Positions 2,139 through 42,892 of a stretch of 54,960 nt of DNA are shown here, one piece after another (the stretch's first letter is position 1; each line of letters begins with the position of its first letter). The stretch is taken from positions 1-54,960 of the IMG/VR virus record IMGVR_UViG_3300046028_005371. The stretch is one strand, 5' to 3'. The stretch comes from a virus. Made by a program: the position numbers and the translations under genes. Below the pieces are notes generated by a model. It saw only the letters and a program-made list of their open reading frames with translations, searched no databases and was not told the DNA's origin.

Positions 2139-2471
2139 ATGGAAATTATTTTAGCACTTGTAGTACTTGCCGCCGCACTTTGGTGGTTCTTCTTTCGTGA
2201 TGAAAAGAAAACAGAAGTTGAAACACCTGTTGTTCGAGAAAATGAGATTGTAGAAGCTACAGTTGAACTAGCACCTGCAGTTGTTGCCGCTACGGTAGTA
2301 GTAGCAGATAACACAGTTGCACCAATGCCAGTTGGAATTGAAGCAGTAGTAGCTGCTCCGGTTGCCAAGGAGCCCCGTAAACCACGTGCTCCTAAGGCAG
2401 AAACTCCAGCTAAGCCAGCCGCAAAAAAAGCAGCCCCTGCTAAGAAGGCCGCTGTTTCAAAGAAGGTTTAA
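2139..2471 (+). CDS. Membrane-anchored Ala/Pro/Lys-rich protein
   Basis: 110 residues. Residues 2-18 form one hydrophobic helix (IILALVVLAAALWWFFF) followed by an acidic and valine-rich linker. From about residue 78 there is a histone-H1-like tail built of Lys, Ala and Pro (AKPAAKKAAPAKKAAVSKK). The start is chosen by an AAAGGA site 10 nt upstream; a TATACT -10-like box lies at 2112-2117. It is the only plus-strand gene in this neighbourhood and its end overlaps the end of the uvsE gene by 15 bp. The tail could bind nucleic acid or anionic polymers at the inner membrane, but this is inference from composition alone. Confidence 0.65.
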   Translation: MEIILALVVLAAALWWFFFRDEKKTEVETPVVRENEIVEATVELAPAVVAATVVVADNTVAPMPVGIEAVVAAPVAKEPRKPRAPKAETPAKPAAKKAAPAKKAAVSKKV

Positions 2472-34528: not shown

Positions 34529-34568
34529 GAATATTATTAGTTGATTAATAGATTTTAATCGTGCTTGA

Positions 34569-35015
34569 TTAAATTTTTTCTATGTTAACTCCTGATTTTT
34601 CTAAAAACTTAATCCCAGAGTCATCTCTATAATTTTTATTATAGTATACACTACTAATGCCAGACTGATAGATAAGTTTAGCACACTCAATACAAGGACT
34701 ATGAGTAACGAATAAGGTTGCCCCCAATCCACTGTTAGTTGATTTTGCAAGTTTTGCAATAGCGTTTGATTCAGCATGGAGTACCTCTGGTTTAGTTTTT
34801 AATCTAATTTCAACAACATTTTCATTAACGTCTAGCACATGTCCAATCTCATCTTCGCAGTTGTTGTCCCAACCTGCAGGCATGCCGTTATAGCCGTAAC
34901 TGATAACTGAATCATCTTTGACAATAACAGCGCCTACCTGCAATCTACGTGCATGGCTTAATTGAGCTGTGCGATCTGCCCAATCCATGTATAGTTTTAT
35001 AAATTTATCCTTCAT
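34569..35015 (-). CDS. Deoxycytidylate (dCMP) deaminase
   Basis: 148 residues from the ATG at 35015. The frame runs on to 35114, but that part overlaps the tRNA-Arg gene and is not coding. LHAESNAI (79-86) gives the HAE zinc and catalytic motif, and SPCIECAKL (106-114) gives PCxxC. GYNGMPAGWDNNCED is typical of phage and bacterial dCMP deaminases, which make dUMP for thymidylate synthesis. Ordinary T4-like nucleotide metabolism. Confidence 0.92.
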   Translation of the reverse strand: MKDKFIKLYMDWADRTAQLSHARRLQVGAVIVKDDSVISYGYNGMPAGWDNNCEDEIGHVLDVNENVVEIRLKTKPEVLHAESNAIAKLAKSTNSGLGATLFVTHSPCIECAKLIYQSGISSVYYNKNYRDDSGIKFLEKSGVNIEKI

Positions 35016-35024
35016 TATTATCCT

Positions 35025-35099
35025 TGGCCGGCCCTGCAGGAATCGAACCCACACCGCTTGGTTCGAAGCCAAGCATTCTATCCATTGAACTAAGGGCCG
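35025..35099 (-). tRNA. tRNA-Arg(TCG)
   Basis: 75 nt with encoded CCA. Acceptor CGGCCCT/AGGGCCG is perfect; anticodon stem CTTGG/CCAAG with loop CTTCGAA. Stands alone between the dCMP deaminase and kinase genes, 3.7 kb before the main array. Confidence 0.92.
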
Positions 35100-35101
35100 T
35101 A

Positions 35102-35563
35102 TTATACATGCCAAATTTCCGTAAAGCCTTCTTCAAGGACAGGCTCTTCCCAACTGGCAATCATGCTGGCAATAACATGATCTGGGATTTCCTTGCCCGG
35201 CCGGCTCATTAATCGACGCATAAGTTCTTTATGCTCTGGTGTTTTGAATACCACAGCAATATGTTCATAGTCTGGAAGCATACGGAACTTCTTAGCACGT
35301 CTAGAAACAGTAGTGTTGGTCTGATCCCAAACTATATCTCGATTCATTTCACGTGCCACAACAACTTCTTCAGCCATTAAGCCAATGGCTGTGGGCATGA
35401 AATCTGTAAACACTTTGGAATAAGTAAGACCTACTTCTTTAGCATAAAGTTCAACCCATTTGTCTGTGCTAACTTTAACACAAGAAAAAGCCCAGGCCTG
35501 CTTATCTACCCAAGTAGATTTGCCGGACCCAGGCACTCCAATCAATTGATAACATTTTGGCAT
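35102..35563 (-). CDS. Polynucleotide kinase-like P-loop kinase
   Basis: 153 residues. Walker A GVPGSGKST (9-17), then DKWVELYAKEVGLTYS and IVWDQTNTTVSRR (lid-like Arg pair), as in the kinase domain of T4 polynucleotide kinase and related AAA_33 kinases. No phosphatase domain is fused; separate phosphatase genes lie just upstream. Would put a 5' phosphate on RNA ends before ligation, fitting the RNA ligase gene nearby. Confidence 0.82.
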   Translation of the reverse strand: MPKCYQLIGVPGSGKSTWVDKQAWAFSCVKVSTDKWVELYAKEVGLTYSKVFTDFMPTAIGLMAEEVVVAREMNRDIVWDQTNTTVSRRAKKFRMLPDYEHIAVVFKTPEHKELMRRLMSRPGKEIPDHVIASMIASWEEPVLEEGFTEIWHV

Positions 35564-35679
35564 TATAATACCTCTACTATATAATATCCTGAATTAGGAT
35601 AATTTTCTAATAACCATTCCAACATGCCTGGTTCAACAGGCAGTTGGATGGAATTGTACTTGTTAGTAATATAAGTCAT
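35563..35679 (-). CDS. Very small protein
   Basis: 38 residues (MTYITNKYNSIQLPVEPGML...). The ATG follows the phosphoesterase stop by 1 nt and the stop overlaps the kinase start as TAATG, so it fits exactly into the operon. Longer versions of this frame run antisense to nothing but overlap the phosphoesterase gene and are not preferred. Function unknown. Confidence 0.5.
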   Translation of the reverse strand: MTYITNKYNSIQLPVEPGMLEWLLENYPNSGYYIVEVL

Positions 35680-35680
35680 A

Positions 35681-36286
35681 TTACATTGTTGGCCCGTTGC
35701 CACTCTTAAATCCAACGCTTCCACCTTCTTCTTCGATGCGTTTGATAACATCTTCAAACAAGATAGGCGCAAAATCCGGAGTTTGCTCCACGCAAACACA
35801 ATGGTAACGTGGATCAATTTTGTCACTGTACAAAACTTCTCCAGTTTTAGCATCAACGCCACGAGCCTTCTTCACGCGATTTGCGTGTAAGTGTCCGTGA
35901 ATGTTGACACCGAAACGACCCATTGAATCCGAATGTAACGGAATATGGCTAAGAATCATACCGTTCATAACGTGATAAGCTCTAAGTTCTCTAAAGTACA
36001 AGCGATAATCGTCGTCTTTAAAGATATCGTGGTTACCACGAATTAAAACTTTGTCGCCGTTAAGTCTGGATAAGATTTTTAACGATTTACGATTGATAAC
36101 AACGTCACCCAAATGATAGACTTTGTCAGTAGGCTTGACTCTTTCGTTCCACGCCTTGACCATCGCCTCATCCATTTCATCTGCGTCATCCCACGGTCTT
36201 AACTTGGTAACACCGTCATTACGTGTGAAGCGACATACACCAGTGTGACCAAAGTGCGTGTCGCTGACTAAAAATACACTAGGCAT
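35681..36286 (-). CDS. Calcineurin-like metallophosphoesterase
   Basis: 201 residues. All five metal-binding blocks are visible: SDTHFGH (8-14), LGDVV, RGNHD, SHIPLH and HGHLH. This family cleaves phosphomonoesters or diesters, including RNA end repair and cyclic nucleotides. Its place between kinase, dual-specificity phosphatase and RNA ligase genes suggests a role in processing RNA termini; this is inference. An RBS AAAAGGAGAAA precedes the ATG. Confidence 0.88.
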   Translation of the reverse strand: MPSVFLVSDTHFGHTGVCRFTRNDGVTKLRPWDDADEMDEAMVKAWNERVKPTDKVYHLGDVVINRKSLKILSRLNGDKVLIRGNHDIFKDDDYRLYFRELRAYHVMNGMILSHIPLHSDSMGRFGVNIHGHLHANRVKKARGVDAKTGEVLYSDKIDPRYHCVCVEQTPDFAPILFEDVIKRIEEEGGSVGFKSGNGPTM

Positions 36287-36301
36287 ACATTTCTCCTTTT
36301 A

Positions 36302-36865
36302 TTAAATATCACCTTCTAATTTTCTACGCTCTCGACGTTCAGCCGCTAACGTAAAAACTTTTTCATTGTCATTGGTCCAATCTATTGCTTTCTTGGGAAT
36401 GATCAAACCAGATTCGAGCGTCACACCGTTAATGGTATGAGTCTCGTTCTCGTCATAGGTCCACCCCAAGTGCTTCATCATACGATGTTTGACGCACAGA
36501 TTAGGACTGCGGAACACTTCGGTATCCTCAAAGCCCATCATGACTCCGACTTCACAGACTGCGCCACTACGGCACACACCTGCTACACAATGAACAACTA
36601 CGTTCATACGGTTATCCAGTGCATGTTGTAGCAACTGAGATAGTTTAGCGGCTTGCTCGTGACTGCAACGCATTTCTTCTTCCAGGCACTCGTCGCGTTC
36701 TTCGATGTCCAAAAATTGAAATTGATGAACTTCTTTAAACTTGTACAACGGAGTAGGAAAATCTCCAGGCGGATCCACAATTTGAATTAGCATGGCGTTC
36801 TCGCCCGGGTTAATGTGATGTCCTTTTTTGATGTCGCTTAGTGCAACGTTTTGAATCCATGGCAT
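36302..36865 (-). CDS. Cysteine-based (dual-specificity/tyrosine) phosphatase
   Basis: 187 residues from the ATG at 36865, one nt after the RNA-ligase stop; the frame to 36877 would overlap that gene. VVVHCVAGVCRSGA carries the CX5R signature (Cys93, Arg99). Members dephosphorylate proteins, or RNA 5' ends in some branches. Whether it acts in RNA repair or on host proteins is open. Confidence 0.85.
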   Translation of the reverse strand: MPWIQNVALSDIKKGHHINPGENAMLIQIVDPPGDFPTPLYKFKEVHQFQFLDIEERDECLEEEMRCSHEQAAKLSQLLQHALDNRMNVVVHCVAGVCRSGAVCEVGVMMGFEDTEVFRSPNLCVKHRMMKHLGWTYDENETHTINGVTLESGLIIPKKAIDWTNDNEKVFTLAAERRERRKLEGDI

Positions 36866-36866
36866 T

Positions 36867-37895
36867 TTAATCACCACCCTTTAATAAAAATTTATTTGAA
36901 ATTGCCTTGAACGAACATTGCATGGCCTTGCTTTTAAACACAAGACCTTCACGTTCACAGCCAATCATTCCCATAACTGATTTGCCTTCTGCAAATTTCA
37001 GAATATTGTCAATGCTGTTGATGCCTAAAGTATCCCACAATTCGGCACCAAATGCTAGCACAGGCACATGTTTGATATCGTGTTCTTCAACAAATGCATT
37101 ACGTTCAGTAGGAGTTAGATATTTGCCAGTATCAATATCGTAGATATCAAACAAGAAAAATTCCTGTCCTTTTTGCTTGTATGGATTACCTTGGATACCT
37201 TCTCCAATCAACTCACCCTGTAGTGCAAGATTACGATTGGCACGACGAAGCTTCAACTCCAAATCATTGCGTACTGCAACCTTCCATAGGCTGTTGGTTT
37301 CGCTGGGCTTGAGTTCAAGATTACGGCTACACACACCAAACTCGCCGTCACGTAGGTACACAGTCATTGAGCTGCCATCCAGCTTTTCAGTGACTTCCCA
37401 TACATGTTGTTCTCTAAGCCAGTAGTCAAATTCTTCTTTCAAGTTTTGAACACGTTCTTGGTCAGTCTTTTGGATCCAACCTGGGAACATGCCTTTGACT
37501 TCTCCTGCCAACTGTGCAGGGACGGGAGCTTCGTATTTCACAATGCCTAGTGGAAATGATACATCGAGTCCTTCAAACAACTCTGATTCTACCATAGTCA
37601 ATGTAGACAACGGCAACAACAGTCCCTGGCTCAATTGCCCACGTAGTTTCATTGTACGCAGTCGTTCACCAGCAATGCCGTCAAACACTCGAGGCTCCTT
37701 GCCCTTGCTCAAGAATGGGGCCAGTGCGTGAGGAATCCAAGAATCGATTTCGCAATACACAGCAAGATCGCCTTGTTTGAATTCGCCCTTTTTAACTACA
37801 GCAGTCCATCCACCGATGACTGCACATTCGATAGCATCGGCATCCGGGATAGGACGCAGAGCATCAATCTTCCTAATGGTTGCTAATTTACGCAT
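36867..37895 (-). CDS. RNA ligase, DraRnl/Rnl5-like
   Basis: 342 residues. An N-terminal OB-fold-like region (about 1-110, starting MRKLATIRKIDALRPIPDAD) precedes the nucleotidyltransferase motif TEKLDGSS with Lys171 as the AMP-accepting residue, followed by LQGELIGEGIQGNPY (motif III/IIIa region) and EGLVFKSK (motif IV/V). That order, OB domain first, is characteristic of the Deinococcus Rnl5 type. Seals nicked RNA; with the kinase and phosphatases it makes a tRNA-repair set against anticodon nucleases. Confidence 0.9.
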   Translation of the reverse strand: MRKLATIRKIDALRPIPDADAIECAVIGGWTAVVKKGEFKQGDLAVYCEIDSWIPHALAPFLSKGKEPRVFDGIAGERLRTMKLRGQLSQGLLLPLSTLTMVESELFEGLDVSFPLGIVKYEAPVPAQLAGEVKGMFPGWIQKTDQERVQNLKEEFDYWLREQHVWEVTEKLDGSSMTVYLRDGEFGVCSRNLELKPSETNSLWKVAVRNDLELKLRRANRNLALQGELIGEGIQGNPYKQKGQEFFLFDIYDIDTGKYLTPTERNAFVEEHDIKHVPVLAFGAELWDTLGINSIDNILKFAEGKSVMGMIGCEREGLVFKSKAMQCSFKAISNKFLLKGGD

Positions 37896-37905
37896 TTTTT
37901 ATTCC

Positions 37906-38112
37906 TTAACATTCTAAATCAATGTGACGACCTTTGTCCAAATCTAATCGAAGATTTCTACTTACTCGTTCTGCGATAATTTGATCAACTCTACGCTCTT
38001 CAATTTTTTTACTGTATTCCTCAGTTCGTTGCTTGTCCATACGAGCCTGATCTACTCTATACTGTTCTAGGTTATATTTTATAACACTTTGTTCTGCTCT
38101 TGAGATTTCCAT
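37906..38112 (-). CDS. Small charged helical protein
   Basis: 68 residues, highly charged, predicted continuous helix or coiled coil (YNLEQYRVDQARMDKQRTEE). 1-nt overlap with the zincin gene stop. Function unknown. Confidence 0.6.
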   Translation of the reverse strand: MEISRAEQSVIKYNLEQYRVDQARMDKQRTEEYSKKIEERRVDQIIAERVSRNLRLDLDKGRHIDLEC

Positions 38113-38510
38113 TATTCTACGGCCCTCCTAAAAATAAGTTCCTGCTTTGAAAACGCATCTTGTTCCCAAGGCATGTCCAAATACTTAGTCTTCTTGTTAT
38201 ATTTCTTTCCGCGCCAGTAATTGACACCATTTTCTACTTTAAGAATACCTTTGGCCATTTGACGAACATGAACCATTTCGTGGGCAAGTGTTACTCCCAT
38301 ATCAACAAACCAACCCGGCTTAACAACTACAACATAGGCATCTAACCCATTTAATGGCATAGTCATACCGTGTCCACCGCATTCGTTGGCAACTCGAACT
38401 AGTAAAACTTTTTTACTATTTTCCAATTTAAGTTGTTTGATCATAGAGGGTAAAATTGCCTCTATGAATTTACGCTTCTTTACGCTACGAGTTTCTACCA
38501 AAAATTCCAT
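38112..38510 (-). CDS. Small zincin-type metallopeptidase-like protein
   Basis: 132 residues. VTLAHEMVHVRQ contains HExxH and the following YLDMPWEQDAFSKQE supplies a candidate third ligand (Glu), the arrangement I recall for small SprT-like or WLM-like phage proteins. Transcribed from a perfect sigma70 promoter (38535-38563) with an AAGGAG ribosome site. Substrate unknown. Confidence 0.7.
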   Translation of the reverse strand: MEFLVETRSVKKRKFIEAILPSMIKQLKLENSKKVLLVRVANECGGHGMTMPLNGLDAYVVVVKPGWFVDMGVTLAHEMVHVRQMAKGILKVENGVNYWRGKKYNKKTKYLDMPWEQDAFSKQELIFRRAVE

Positions 38511-38534
38511 TATATTACTCCTTGCTATGTATAT

Positions 38535-38563
38535 ATTATAGCATGGTTTTACCAGTTTGTCAA
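38535..38563 (-). promoter_or_regulatory. Sigma70 promoter
   Basis: Minus strand: TTGACA (38558-38563), 17-bp spacer, TATAAT (38535-38540), both perfect. The 36-bp block 38531-38566 recurs at 47072-47107 with two differences. Confidence 0.88.
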
Positions 38564-38565
38564 CC

Positions 38566-38573
38566 TATAAATA
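38566..38573 (+). promoter_or_regulatory. T4-type late promoter box TATAAATA
   Basis: Exact plus-strand box, abutting the -35 element of the opposite-strand sigma70 promoter, and only 6 nt before the ATG at 38580. Confidence 0.7.
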
Positions 38574-38579
38574 TATATT

Positions 38580-38786
38580 ATGAAGCCAAAAACTCATCTT
38601 GAAGAAATCCAACAAGAGATCGACGAGTTACTCGAACTTTGTTATAAAGGCGATAAAATGGAATCGTTGATCTATCAACGTGGATTATTATCTGGGTGGT
38701 TGGCAAGGCTTGCATCTACAGACTATATTGTCCATAACGAAATAAAAGAACGCCTTTATAACGCCAAAAGAAAAACCTCACCGTAG
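38580..38786 (+). CDS. Small helical protein, predicted leaderless mRNA
   Basis: 68 residues (MKPKTHLEEIQQEIDELLEL...), all helical, no motif. The start codon lies 6 nt after a TATAAATA box and no Shine-Dalgarno sequence exists, so +1 and the ATG should coincide. It is the only plus-strand gene between 32 and 55 kb. Confidence 0.65.
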   Translation: MKPKTHLEEIQQEIDELLELCYKGDKMESLIYQRGLLSGWLARLASTDYIVHNEIKERLYNAKRKTSP

Positions 38787-38818
38787 AATTACATTCCATT
38801 GGGTGGGGCCGTGTTGTT

Positions 38819-38892
38819 TGGAGCGGGTAGAGAGAATCGAACTCTCACGCTAACCTTGGCAAGGTCACAAGCTACCATTACATCATACCCGC
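38819..38892 (-). tRNA. tRNA-Gly(GCC)
   Basis: 74 nt with CCA. Acceptor GCGGGTA/TACCCGC perfect, anticodon loop TTGCCAA. 3'-most gene of the main array. Confidence 0.92.
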
Positions 38893-38893
38893 A

Positions 38894-39559
38894 TTAAAGA
38901 TATTTTTTTTGTCTTAGTATAGGCGGTTTTGTGTTAGTGCCTATTTTTGTCACAAAAAAGACCTGTGTTAATCTAAGATCAGAATCTGAATAATAACTGT
39001 TTACGCCGTGAGCAGAACTTGAATCAAATGCAATTAATCGATTGTAGACATTATTAAATCTAATTGTTTCAATATATGCATCCCTATGCCTTTGAATACG
39101 GTTATCATAATCAGAATCTATACCATTTTTATAAAAATCTTTTTTAGCATTAGATAGATCTAATTTTTCTTTATCAACTAATTTAAAAATAGAAGTTCCA
39201 CAATTTAAATCTATTTTAGGAGTTAAGAAAATAACTCCGGCAAAAATAACATTTTCATCATAATGAACCCAACCCATATTCTTTGGAGACATTGGATTAG
39301 GATCAACAGACGGTATCAATTGAAAACTTGTGTCTATTTCGTAGCTAATAGATTCAGAATCTAAATCAAAGAATACCGAAAGTAGTTTATTACAAAATTG
39401 ATTAAAAAAATTCTTATCTAATTCATCTAAGCGTTTTGTTCGCTTTCCCGGATAGTTGCCTTCTACCGGCACTGAATATTCCTGCTTTAGTGCAAGTGCT
39501 CGAACACTATCTGGATCACTGTAAAAGTCATCAATACATAAGGCAGGAATATTATTCAT
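38894..39559 (-). CDS. Fe/2OG-oxygenase-like protein of the DUF6445 type
   Basis: 221 residues. WVHYDENVIFAGVIFLTP contains H99-x-D101, GTSIF follows, and NRLIAFDSSSAHGVNSYYSD has His184 with Arg196 (LRLTQVFFV). This is the layout of DUF6445, a 2-oxoglutarate oxygenase-like family frequent in marine phages. It sits between two tRNA stretches and ends 1-2 nt from a tRNA gene. Substrate unknown. Confidence 0.75.
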   Translation of the reverse strand: MNNIPALCIDDFYSDPDSVRALALKQEYSVPVEGNYPGKRTKRLDELDKNFFNQFCNKLLSVFFDLDSESISYEIDTSFQLIPSVDPNPMSPKNMGWVHYDENVIFAGVIFLTPKIDLNCGTSIFKLVDKEKLDLSNAKKDFYKNGIDSDYDNRIQRHRDAYIETIRFNNVYNRLIAFDSSSAHGVNSYYSDSDLRLTQVFFVTKIGTNTKPPILRQKKYL

Positions 39560-42675: not shown

Positions 42676-42752
42676 TGGTACCCCGTGTCTGATTCGAACA
42701 GACATCCAACAGATTTTGAATCTATCCGCACTACCAATTAGCGTAACGGGGC
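42676..42752 (-). tRNA. tRNA with Leu anticodon CAA on a class I body
   Basis: 77 nt with CCA. Acceptor GCCCCGT/ACGGGGT, anticodon stem ATAGA/TCTGT, loop TTCAAAA, short variable loop, third member of the shared-body set. Confidence 0.82.
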
Positions 42753-42757
42753 ATATA

Positions 42758-42810
42758 TGGTGGTGGACTTCTGGGCCCATGGAACCCATCACCTCGCGAG
42801 TACGTCCACC
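42758..42810 (-). ncRNA. 53-nt tRNA-like minigene
   Basis: Perfect 7-bp acceptor GGTGGAC/GTCCACC followed by A and encoded CCA, exactly as in the flanking tRNAs, but only 35 nt between the acceptor strands. CTCGCGAG forms a D-arm-sized hairpin and TGGG...CCCA a T-arm-sized one; there is no anticodon arm. Confidence 0.6.
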
Positions 42811-42816
42811 GTAACT

Positions 42817-42892
42817 TGGTACCAACTTGAGGGATCGAACCTCATTCCACGGTGCTTCAAACCGTTGCTATGACCACATCAGCTAAGTTGGC
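42817..42892 (-). tRNA. tRNA-Phe(GAA)
   Basis: 76 nt with CCA. Acceptor GCCAACT/AGTTGGT, anticodon stem ACGGT/ACCGT, loop TTGAAGC. Confidence 0.92.

What the first reader, a model, noticed from the sequence alone, without database searches (positions are those of the whole stretch)
42758..42810. 53-nt armless tRNA-like gene
It keeps a perfect 7-bp acceptor, discriminator A and encoded CCA, spaced 5-6 nt from its neighbours like a real tRNA, but has no anticodon arm. It could be a decoy substrate for CCA-dependent enzymes or nucleases, a processing spacer, or a deletion product whose acceptor is still selected.
Basis: partly seen in the sequence, partly recalled or inferred. Interest (0 to 1): 0.7.

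Follow-up and report, generated by a model that had tools for sequence, protein, structure and literature searches.

The report
Anticodon-less mini-tRNA in phage array
Inside a phage's row of tRNA genes sits a 53-letter piece that keeps only the tail end of a tRNA (its closing stem and CCA tip); it is real and not chance, probably cut out like a tRNA, but no relative of it was found, so its purpose is unproven.

Summary
On the minus strand, 42810-42758, a perfect 7-bp helix, discriminator A and encoded CCA enclose 35 nt with no anticodon, D or T arm. It lies 6 nt after tRNA-Phe(GAA) and 5 nt before tRNA-Leu(CAA). Elements of this shape and placement are far above chance in related phage tRNA arrays (16 against 0.27 expected). 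The interior is not demonstrably tRNA-derived. No homolog was found in 271 array loci, in an exact core search of viral and genome contigs, or in cultured phages. So "acceptor still selected" cannot be tested, and "deletion product" is unproven for this copy. Context explains it best: 280 of 594 array gaps of 30-130 nt are closed by a terminal helix (20.8 expected), so array "spacers" are mostly folded RNA units. A few end like tRNAs, including genuine acceptor+T-arm minihelices on 5 contigs. I read the 53-mer as such a folded unit with tRNA-type ends, cut out by the host's tRNA-processing enzymes. A decoy role is possible, with no direct evidence. The larger by-product is a covarying CAGCAA spacer-RNA family (116 members), related to RNAs beside the Ro gene of mycobacteriophages.

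The parts
42758..42810 (-). whole 53-nt acceptor-CCA element
   Evidence: read directly; no ARAGORN or Rfam tRNA match
42804..42810 (-). 5' acceptor strand GGTGGAC
   Evidence: pairs 7 of 7 with 42762-42768
42789..42799 (-). predicted inner hairpin 1, UCGC-GAG-GUGA (4 bp, one G-U)
   Evidence: fold; prediction only
42772..42788 (-). predicted inner hairpin 2, UGGGUUC-CAU-GGGCCCA (7 bp, triloop); holds a GGTTC as in T loops but no 5-bp/7-nt T arm
   Evidence: fold; prediction only
42762..42768 (-). 3' acceptor strand GTCCACC
42761..42761 (-). discriminator base A
42758..42760 (-). encoded CCA
42811..42816 (-). 6-nt spacer AGTTAC after tRNA-Phe
42753..42757 (-). 5-nt spacer TATAT before tRNA-Leu
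42817..42892 (-). upstream neighbour tRNA-Phe(GAA)
42676..42752 (-). downstream neighbour tRNA-Leu(CAA)

Best explanation
The element is a folded spacer unit of the phage tRNA array that has tRNA-type ends. It is transcribed with the array from the minus strand. Its 7-bp terminal helix followed by ACCA is treated by the host's tRNA-processing enzymes as a tRNA end: RNase P would cut before G1, and 3' trimming would stop at or near CCA. The neighbouring tRNAs keep their usual 5-6-nt spacing, and a stable RNA of about 53 nt is released as a by-product. Shown: anatomy, spacing, non-chance helix and CCA, and the rule that long gaps in such arrays are helix-closed RNA units. Inferred: transcription, RNase P cutting, stability, and the absence of any further function.
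For: Exact anatomy and modal spacing. Non-chance: 13 elements against 0.11 in 665 gaps; 16 against 0.27 in 396 gaps. 280 of 594 gaps of 30-130 nt have a terminal helix of 7 bp or more near both ends, against 20.8 (maximum 32) in shuffles. G+C 62% against 44% for the array and 52% for its tRNAs. Other short units with tRNA ends at tRNA spacing: L297 50 nt; minihelices in L205, L346/L328, L366, L408.
Against: No transcript data. One metagenome contig only. No homolog in 271 array loci, so nothing shows that the terminal helix is maintained. Most closed spacers end without NCCA (19 of 280 have it), so a plain spacer would not need a discriminator and CCA. The predicted fold is not more stable than shuffles.
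Confidence: 0.45

Rival explanations
1. A tRNA relic: a former tRNA lost its D and anticodon arms by deletion, and the acceptor and CCA persist because they are young or because unprocessed junk would disturb the neighbours.
For: True deletion products occur in these arrays: 36-37-nt acceptor+T-arm minihelices on 5 contigs (4 sequences), sharing the 3' end of tRNA-Ile(UAU) (95 of 108 hits of that end lie in ARAGORN Ile(tat) genes; the 13 others are 5 minihelices and, by inspection, 8 Ile(tat)-type genes missed or cut off). The element's AGGTGATGGGTTC lines up with the variable loop and T arm of some tRNAs, e.g. Ala(UGC) of L428.
Against: The resemblance is within chance: local score 30 against shuffles up to 30 (2 of 40 reach it); 3'-half profile 34 of 400 shuffles and 48 of 400 gap fragments as good; best anchored alignment 17 of 60 (Ala alone, picked afterwards, 2 of 60). 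No full tRNA among 3170 has this acceptor: the nearest differ at 2 positions on the 5' side and 2 at the 3' end.
Confidence: 0.27
2. A decoy: the RNA presents an acceptor helix with CCA to host toxins or enzymes that recognise only that end (for example toxSAS enzymes that pyrophosphorylate CCA), sparing working tRNAs.
For: Acceptor minihelices are sufficient substrates for the toxSAS FaRel2, with determinants G1-C72, C2-G71, G4-C69 and Pu5-Py68 (PMC11559606, passages read); the element has three of the four. The phage carries RNA-ligase-, kinase- and phosphoesterase-family genes beside the array, which fits exposure to tRNA damage.
Against: The second pair is G-C, not the C-G that FaRel2 needs. 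No conservation, no known host, no test. A decoy under selection should recur in relatives; none of 24 other distinct gaps of 20-130 nt after tRNA-Phe holds it.
Confidence: 0.12
3. An accident: a metagenome assembly join or a young random insertion that happens to make a 7-bp inverted repeat and CCA.
For: Seen on one contig; exact core absent from viral contigs and genome contigs (near copies of the window's own record may be left out there). The nearest relatives L002 and L186 (99.7-99.9% identical) break or end before the element.
Against: Perfect helix, discriminator, CCA and modal spacing on both sides together: about 0.01 expected in 396 gaps.
Confidence: 0.1

Closest known systems
T4 species 1 and species 2 RNAs (rnaC, rnaD)
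   Same: Non-tRNA RNAs encoded inside a phage tRNA cluster, a few nt from tRNA-Arg, annotated as small stable RNAs.
   Different: 139 and 119 nt, no encoded CCA end; rnaC folds with a 5-bp/7-nt TTCGAAT arm near its 3' end, which the 53-mer lacks.
tRNA minihelix (acceptor + T arm), here found as genes in L205, L346/L328, L366, L408
   Same: Acceptor helix, discriminator and CCA without D and anticodon arms, at tRNA spacing.
   Different: The 53-mer has no 5-bp/7-nt T arm stacked on the acceptor and shares no sequence with them.
Armless mitochondrial tRNAs (Romanomermis and others)
   Same: Strongly shortened RNAs with an acceptor end.
   Different: Those lack D and T arms and act as tRNAs in translation (PMC7730189, PMC12221289, abstracts; that they keep the anticodon arm is recalled); this one has no anticodon arm and carries CCA in the DNA.
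Closed array spacers (CAGCAA and AACAYA families of this report)
   Same: Terminal helix within a few nt of both flanking tRNAs.
   Different: No CAGCAA or AACA motif; those do not end in a discriminator plus CCA (AACAYA members show CCA only as part of a longer stem).
GOLLD and ROOL RNAs
   Same: Structured RNAs near phage tRNA islands (PMC12286853, passages).
   Different: Hundreds of nt; no Rfam match in this window.

Membership tests
tRNA (Rfam RF00005) | 7-bp acceptor, discriminator, CCA | tested here: met
tRNA (Rfam RF00005) | anticodon arm (5 bp, 7-nt loop) | tested here: not met
   no such arm in sequence or fold
tRNA (Rfam RF00005) | family covariance score | tested here: not met
   no match at E<=10 in a 391-nt scan
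tRNA minihelix (acceptor + T arm) | T arm with TTCRANN loop directly on the acceptor | tested here: not met
   7-nt-loop T arm absent; 3'-half profile score not above shuffles
deletion derivative of a tRNA | interior homologous to part of a tRNA | tested here: inconclusive
   within chance
closed array spacer | terminal helix >=7 bp within 14 nt of both flanking tRNAs | tested here: met
stable RNA of T4 species-1 kind | accumulates as a stable RNA | not testable with these tools
   no expression data
toxSAS substrate or decoy | G1-C72, C2-G71, G4-C69, Pu5-Py68 (FaRel2) | tested here: not met
   3 of 4 pairs; pair 2 is G-C

The most novel reading that the evidence does not exclude
Phage tRNA arrays encode a class of 'half tRNAs' (acceptor end with CCA, 36-53 nt, sometimes with a T arm, no anticodon) that are processed like tRNAs and act as expendable bait for host enzymes that attack or modify the CCA/acceptor end. 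The window's 53-mer is the barest member; the minihelices of L205, L346, L366 and L408 and the 50-mer of L297 are others.
Probability: 0.12. Interest if true: 0.85.

Novelty: new variant of a known kind. Interest (0 to 1): 0.45.

Why it matters
If processed, it shows that an acceptor helix with CCA is enough to be handled as a tRNA gene in nature, and that phage 'spacers' are a reservoir of unannotated small RNAs. If it is bait, it would add a counter-defence against acceptor-directed toxins. The broader pattern, that nearly half of the long gaps are helix-closed RNAs with covarying families, can be tested at once by small-RNA sequencing of any cultured phage with a large array.

Tried and rejected
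Chance: rejected by shuffles. Ordinary tRNA missed by ARAGORN: rejected (no arms, no Rfam score). Several longer gap elements ARE such missed tRNAs, e.g. Ser(TGA)-type 45408-45317. Parent tRNA with the same acceptor: pattern GGTGGACN{30,60}GTCCACCACCA in viral contigs gave 101 stretches (102 matches in the fetched DNA), 0 within 300 nt of a predicted tRNA: chance hits. Homologs by core 19-mer: 0. By blastn in cultured phages: 5 records at E about 6, annotated genes, chance. By covariance model from the single sequence: only itself (1.7e-19) and one hit at E = 9 (L222) that by inspection is a tRNA-like stretch with a T arm. By site: none of 24 other distinct gaps (20-130 nt) after tRNA-Phe; a Phe-to-Leu spacing pattern found one contig (L443) whose match was not that arrangement.

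Ro link of the CAGCAA spacers: tempting, because the mycobacteriophage copies lie just 3' of a Ro-like gene, but the TROVE domain was in 0 of 47 records with CAGCAA arrays and 1 of 50 array records without (10 of 57 short records and 16 of 66 chosen controls, of 136 possible, were left out because of the 50-handle limit). Records are fragments, so this weakens the link without excluding a host Ro. Literature: 8 searches; none of the listings showed a description of anticodon-less acceptor-CCA genes or of the CAGCAA family in phage tRNA arrays; only titles and abstract starts were seen except for the passages of PMC11559606, PMC12286853, PMC13096335 and PMC7824862.

Full report
The observation. 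The window is a virus record of 54,960 bases in IMG/VR. Its minus strand carries an array with 38 ARAGORN tRNAs, most between 38.8 and 46.7 kb. Between tRNA-Phe(GAA) and tRNA-Leu(CAA) the 64-nt gap reads AGTTAC, then a 53-mer (GGTGGAC, 35 nt, GTCCACC, A, CCA), then TATAT. The helix is perfect and the CCA is encoded. Nothing inside resembles an anticodon arm. ARAGORN and Rfam do not call it a tRNA, even at E<=10 in a 391-nt scan. The predicted fold has the terminal helix and two inner hairpins, but 22 of 200 shuffles fold as well. Its G+C is 62%, against 44% in the array and 52% in the tRNAs.

Is it chance? I collected viral contigs through a neighbouring RNA-ligase-family gene, a small ORF in the array, tRNA-Phe patterns and a tRNA 3'-end pattern. 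This gave 442 sequences with the window, 271 of them with three or more tRNAs, 4795 tRNAs in all. Requiring 7 pairs, CCA and placement close to both neighbouring tRNAs, 13 elements were seen in 665 gaps against 0.11 in shuffles, and in the larger set 16 in 396 gaps against 0.27. The list is mixed: by my reading three short elements (window 53 nt, L297 50 nt, L205 37 nt), two members of an AACAYA spacer family, two of a D-armless Gly(UCC)-like family, and six tRNA-like genes of about 70 nt. So the helix with CCA is not chance, but only a handful of cases resemble the window's.

Has it relatives? No. A covariance model made from it finds only itself in 272 sources with 2.47 Mb, apart from one E = 9 match. 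The exact 19-nt core is absent from viral and genome contigs, with the proviso that near copies of the window's own record may be left out there. The acceptor pattern found 101 stretches and 102 matches, none within 300 nt of a tRNA. Cultured phages gave only weak chance matches. The nearest arrays, L002 and L186 (99.7 and 99.9% identical over 4.1 and 3.8 kb), break or end before the element. In L183 and L185 tRNA-Phe is followed by a different spacer, of the CAGCAA family. None of 24 other distinct gaps (20-130 nt) after tRNA-Phe holds it.

Is it a tRNA remnant? In relatives real remnants exist: L205, L346 and L328 (identical), L366 and L408 have 36-37-nt genes made of a 7-bp acceptor and a T arm only, ending in the same CGCTGGTACCA as tRNA-Ile(UAU), 8-9 nt after one tRNA and 2 nt before the next where both neighbours are known and adjacent. 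Their 5' strands differ (ATCAGTG, ACTAGCG, ACTGGCG), yet all keep 7 of 7 pairs, 1-2 of them G-U. The search itself demanded 7 pairs, so this is suggestive only. For the window's element the interior does not beat shuffles in three tests, although one stretch, AGGTGATGGGTTC, lines up well with a variable loop and T arm. I leave this inconclusive.

What the context says. Of 594 distinct gaps of 30-130 nt, 280 are closed by a terminal helix of at least 7 bp near both ends, against 20.8 in shuffles. Some are tRNAs that ARAGORN missed (45 hold a T-loop-like motif), but most fall into spacer families. The clearest is AGGNNNN..CAGCAA..NNNNCCTG: 116 distinct members in 67 loci, with all four Watson-Crick pair types at stem positions 6 and 7. 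The stem was chosen to maximise pairing; the control is 80 of 105 gaps against about 19 in shuffles. Three members lie in the window (see noticed items). So long gaps in these arrays are mostly folded RNA units spaced like tRNAs. The 53-mer fits that rule and adds tRNA-type ends.

Mechanism. I infer that the unit is released by the tRNA-processing enzymes. That RNase P accepts an acceptor-type helix with RCCA is established knowledge (recalled); no cutting was tested. Why keep CCA? Only 19 of 280 closed gaps end in NCCA, so CCA is unusual for a spacer. This is the best argument for something more than a spacer: a relic, or a bait for enzymes that read the acceptor end. FaRel2, a toxSAS toxin, modifies acceptor minihelices and needs G1-C72, C2-G71, G4-C69 and Pu5-Py68 (PMC11559606, passages); the element has all but the second pair. 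The phage has RNA-ligase-, polynucleotide-kinase- and phosphoesterase-family genes by the array, in line with tRNA-damage repair reported in jumbo phages (PMC7824862, one passage).

Comparison. T4 has two non-tRNA stable RNAs in its tRNA cluster; rnaC folds with a T arm near its 3' end. The 53-mer is of the same broad kind, a non-tRNA unit in a phage tRNA array, but smaller and with tRNA ends. It is not a tRNA, not a minihelix in the strict sense, and not a mitochondrial-type armless tRNA (see membership tests).

Verdict. Real, not chance, single-copy and unexplained in function; most likely a folded spacer unit processed like a tRNA (0.45), then a tRNA relic (0.27), a decoy (0.12) or an accident (0.10). 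Interest 0.45 for the element itself. The spacer families around it deserve a separate look.

Noticed in passing
window minus strand 42668-42611, 43897-43841, 44042-43987: Three copies of a spacer RNA family AGGNNNN..CAGCAA..NNNNCCTG with a covarying terminal stem (116 distinct members in 67 loci; control). Rfam gives only sub-threshold hits to Dictyostelium Class I RNA (34.4, 29.3, 16.4 bits; threshold 41.5).
   Followed up: partly
L445 1287-1545 and L446 387-650 (Mycobacterium phages Whirlwind and Kingsolomon): Three CAGCAA RNAs with GGAC/GTCC stems lie just 3' of a Ro-like RNA-binding protein gene; one encloses a YrlA-like tRNA-mimic module (RF02553, about 38 bits, threshold 69). Suggests phage Y RNAs, but TROVE was absent from 47 of 47 CAGCAA array records.
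   Followed up: partly
L233 minus strand, gap 2279-2388 (reverse-strand coordinates): A CAGCAA stem encloses a whole tRNA-like sequence with a TCT anticodon loop and a GGGTTCGATTCCC T arm, as if a tRNA module were inserted in the spacer RNA.
   Followed up: no
window 45746-45659 (-); L185 5995-6083; L017 5009-5095; L031 7822-7908; L224 5447-5547: tRNA-Tyr(GUA)-like genes without a D arm: the segment after the acceptor can pair with the variable region (TCCCTG/CAGGG, CCCTAC/GTAGGG, CACTAC/GTAGTG); some have a non-standard T loop. [quoted passage not shown]
   Followed up: partly
L212, L237, L263, L284, L287, L312, L331, L336, most of them between tRNA-Gly(tcc) and tRNA-Pro(tgg) where listed: About 66-nt D-armless RNA with a GGTCCAC loop (UCC), T CCA end and a covarying acceptor: 8 distinct members.
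   Followed up: partly
L205 4675-4711; L346 761-796 (-); L328 46-81 (-); L366 2244-2279; L408 27-63 (-); - strand coordinates count from the reverse strand: 36-37-nt genes made of acceptor plus T arm only (natural tRNA minihelices), ending like tRNA-Ile(UAU).
   Followed up: yes
window gap 43519-43439; also 41632-41548 and about 45912-45842 (-): Second spacer family with AACACA../..TGTGTT terminal stems, often between tRNA-Lys(ttt) and tRNA-Met(cat).
   Followed up: partly
window 43362-43138 (-): About 220-nt structured RNA with an internal T-arm-like GATGGGTTCAACTCCCA, 91% identical in L185 6756-7003; recalls T4 rnaC.
   Followed up: no
window 45272-45158 (-): 115-nt tRNA-like gene with a CAT anticodon loop and large extra arms, not called by ARAGORN; a similar one in L010 4748-4853 has another loop.
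   Followed up: no
window 44568-44113 (-) and about 44640-44600: HNH endonuclease gene following what looks like the 5' half of a broken tRNA (TCCCGGATAGTTAAATGGTATAACG).
   Followed up: no
window 34560-38895: RNA-ligase-, polynucleotide-kinase- and phosphoesterase-family genes next to the array, a likely tRNA repair set.
   Followed up: no
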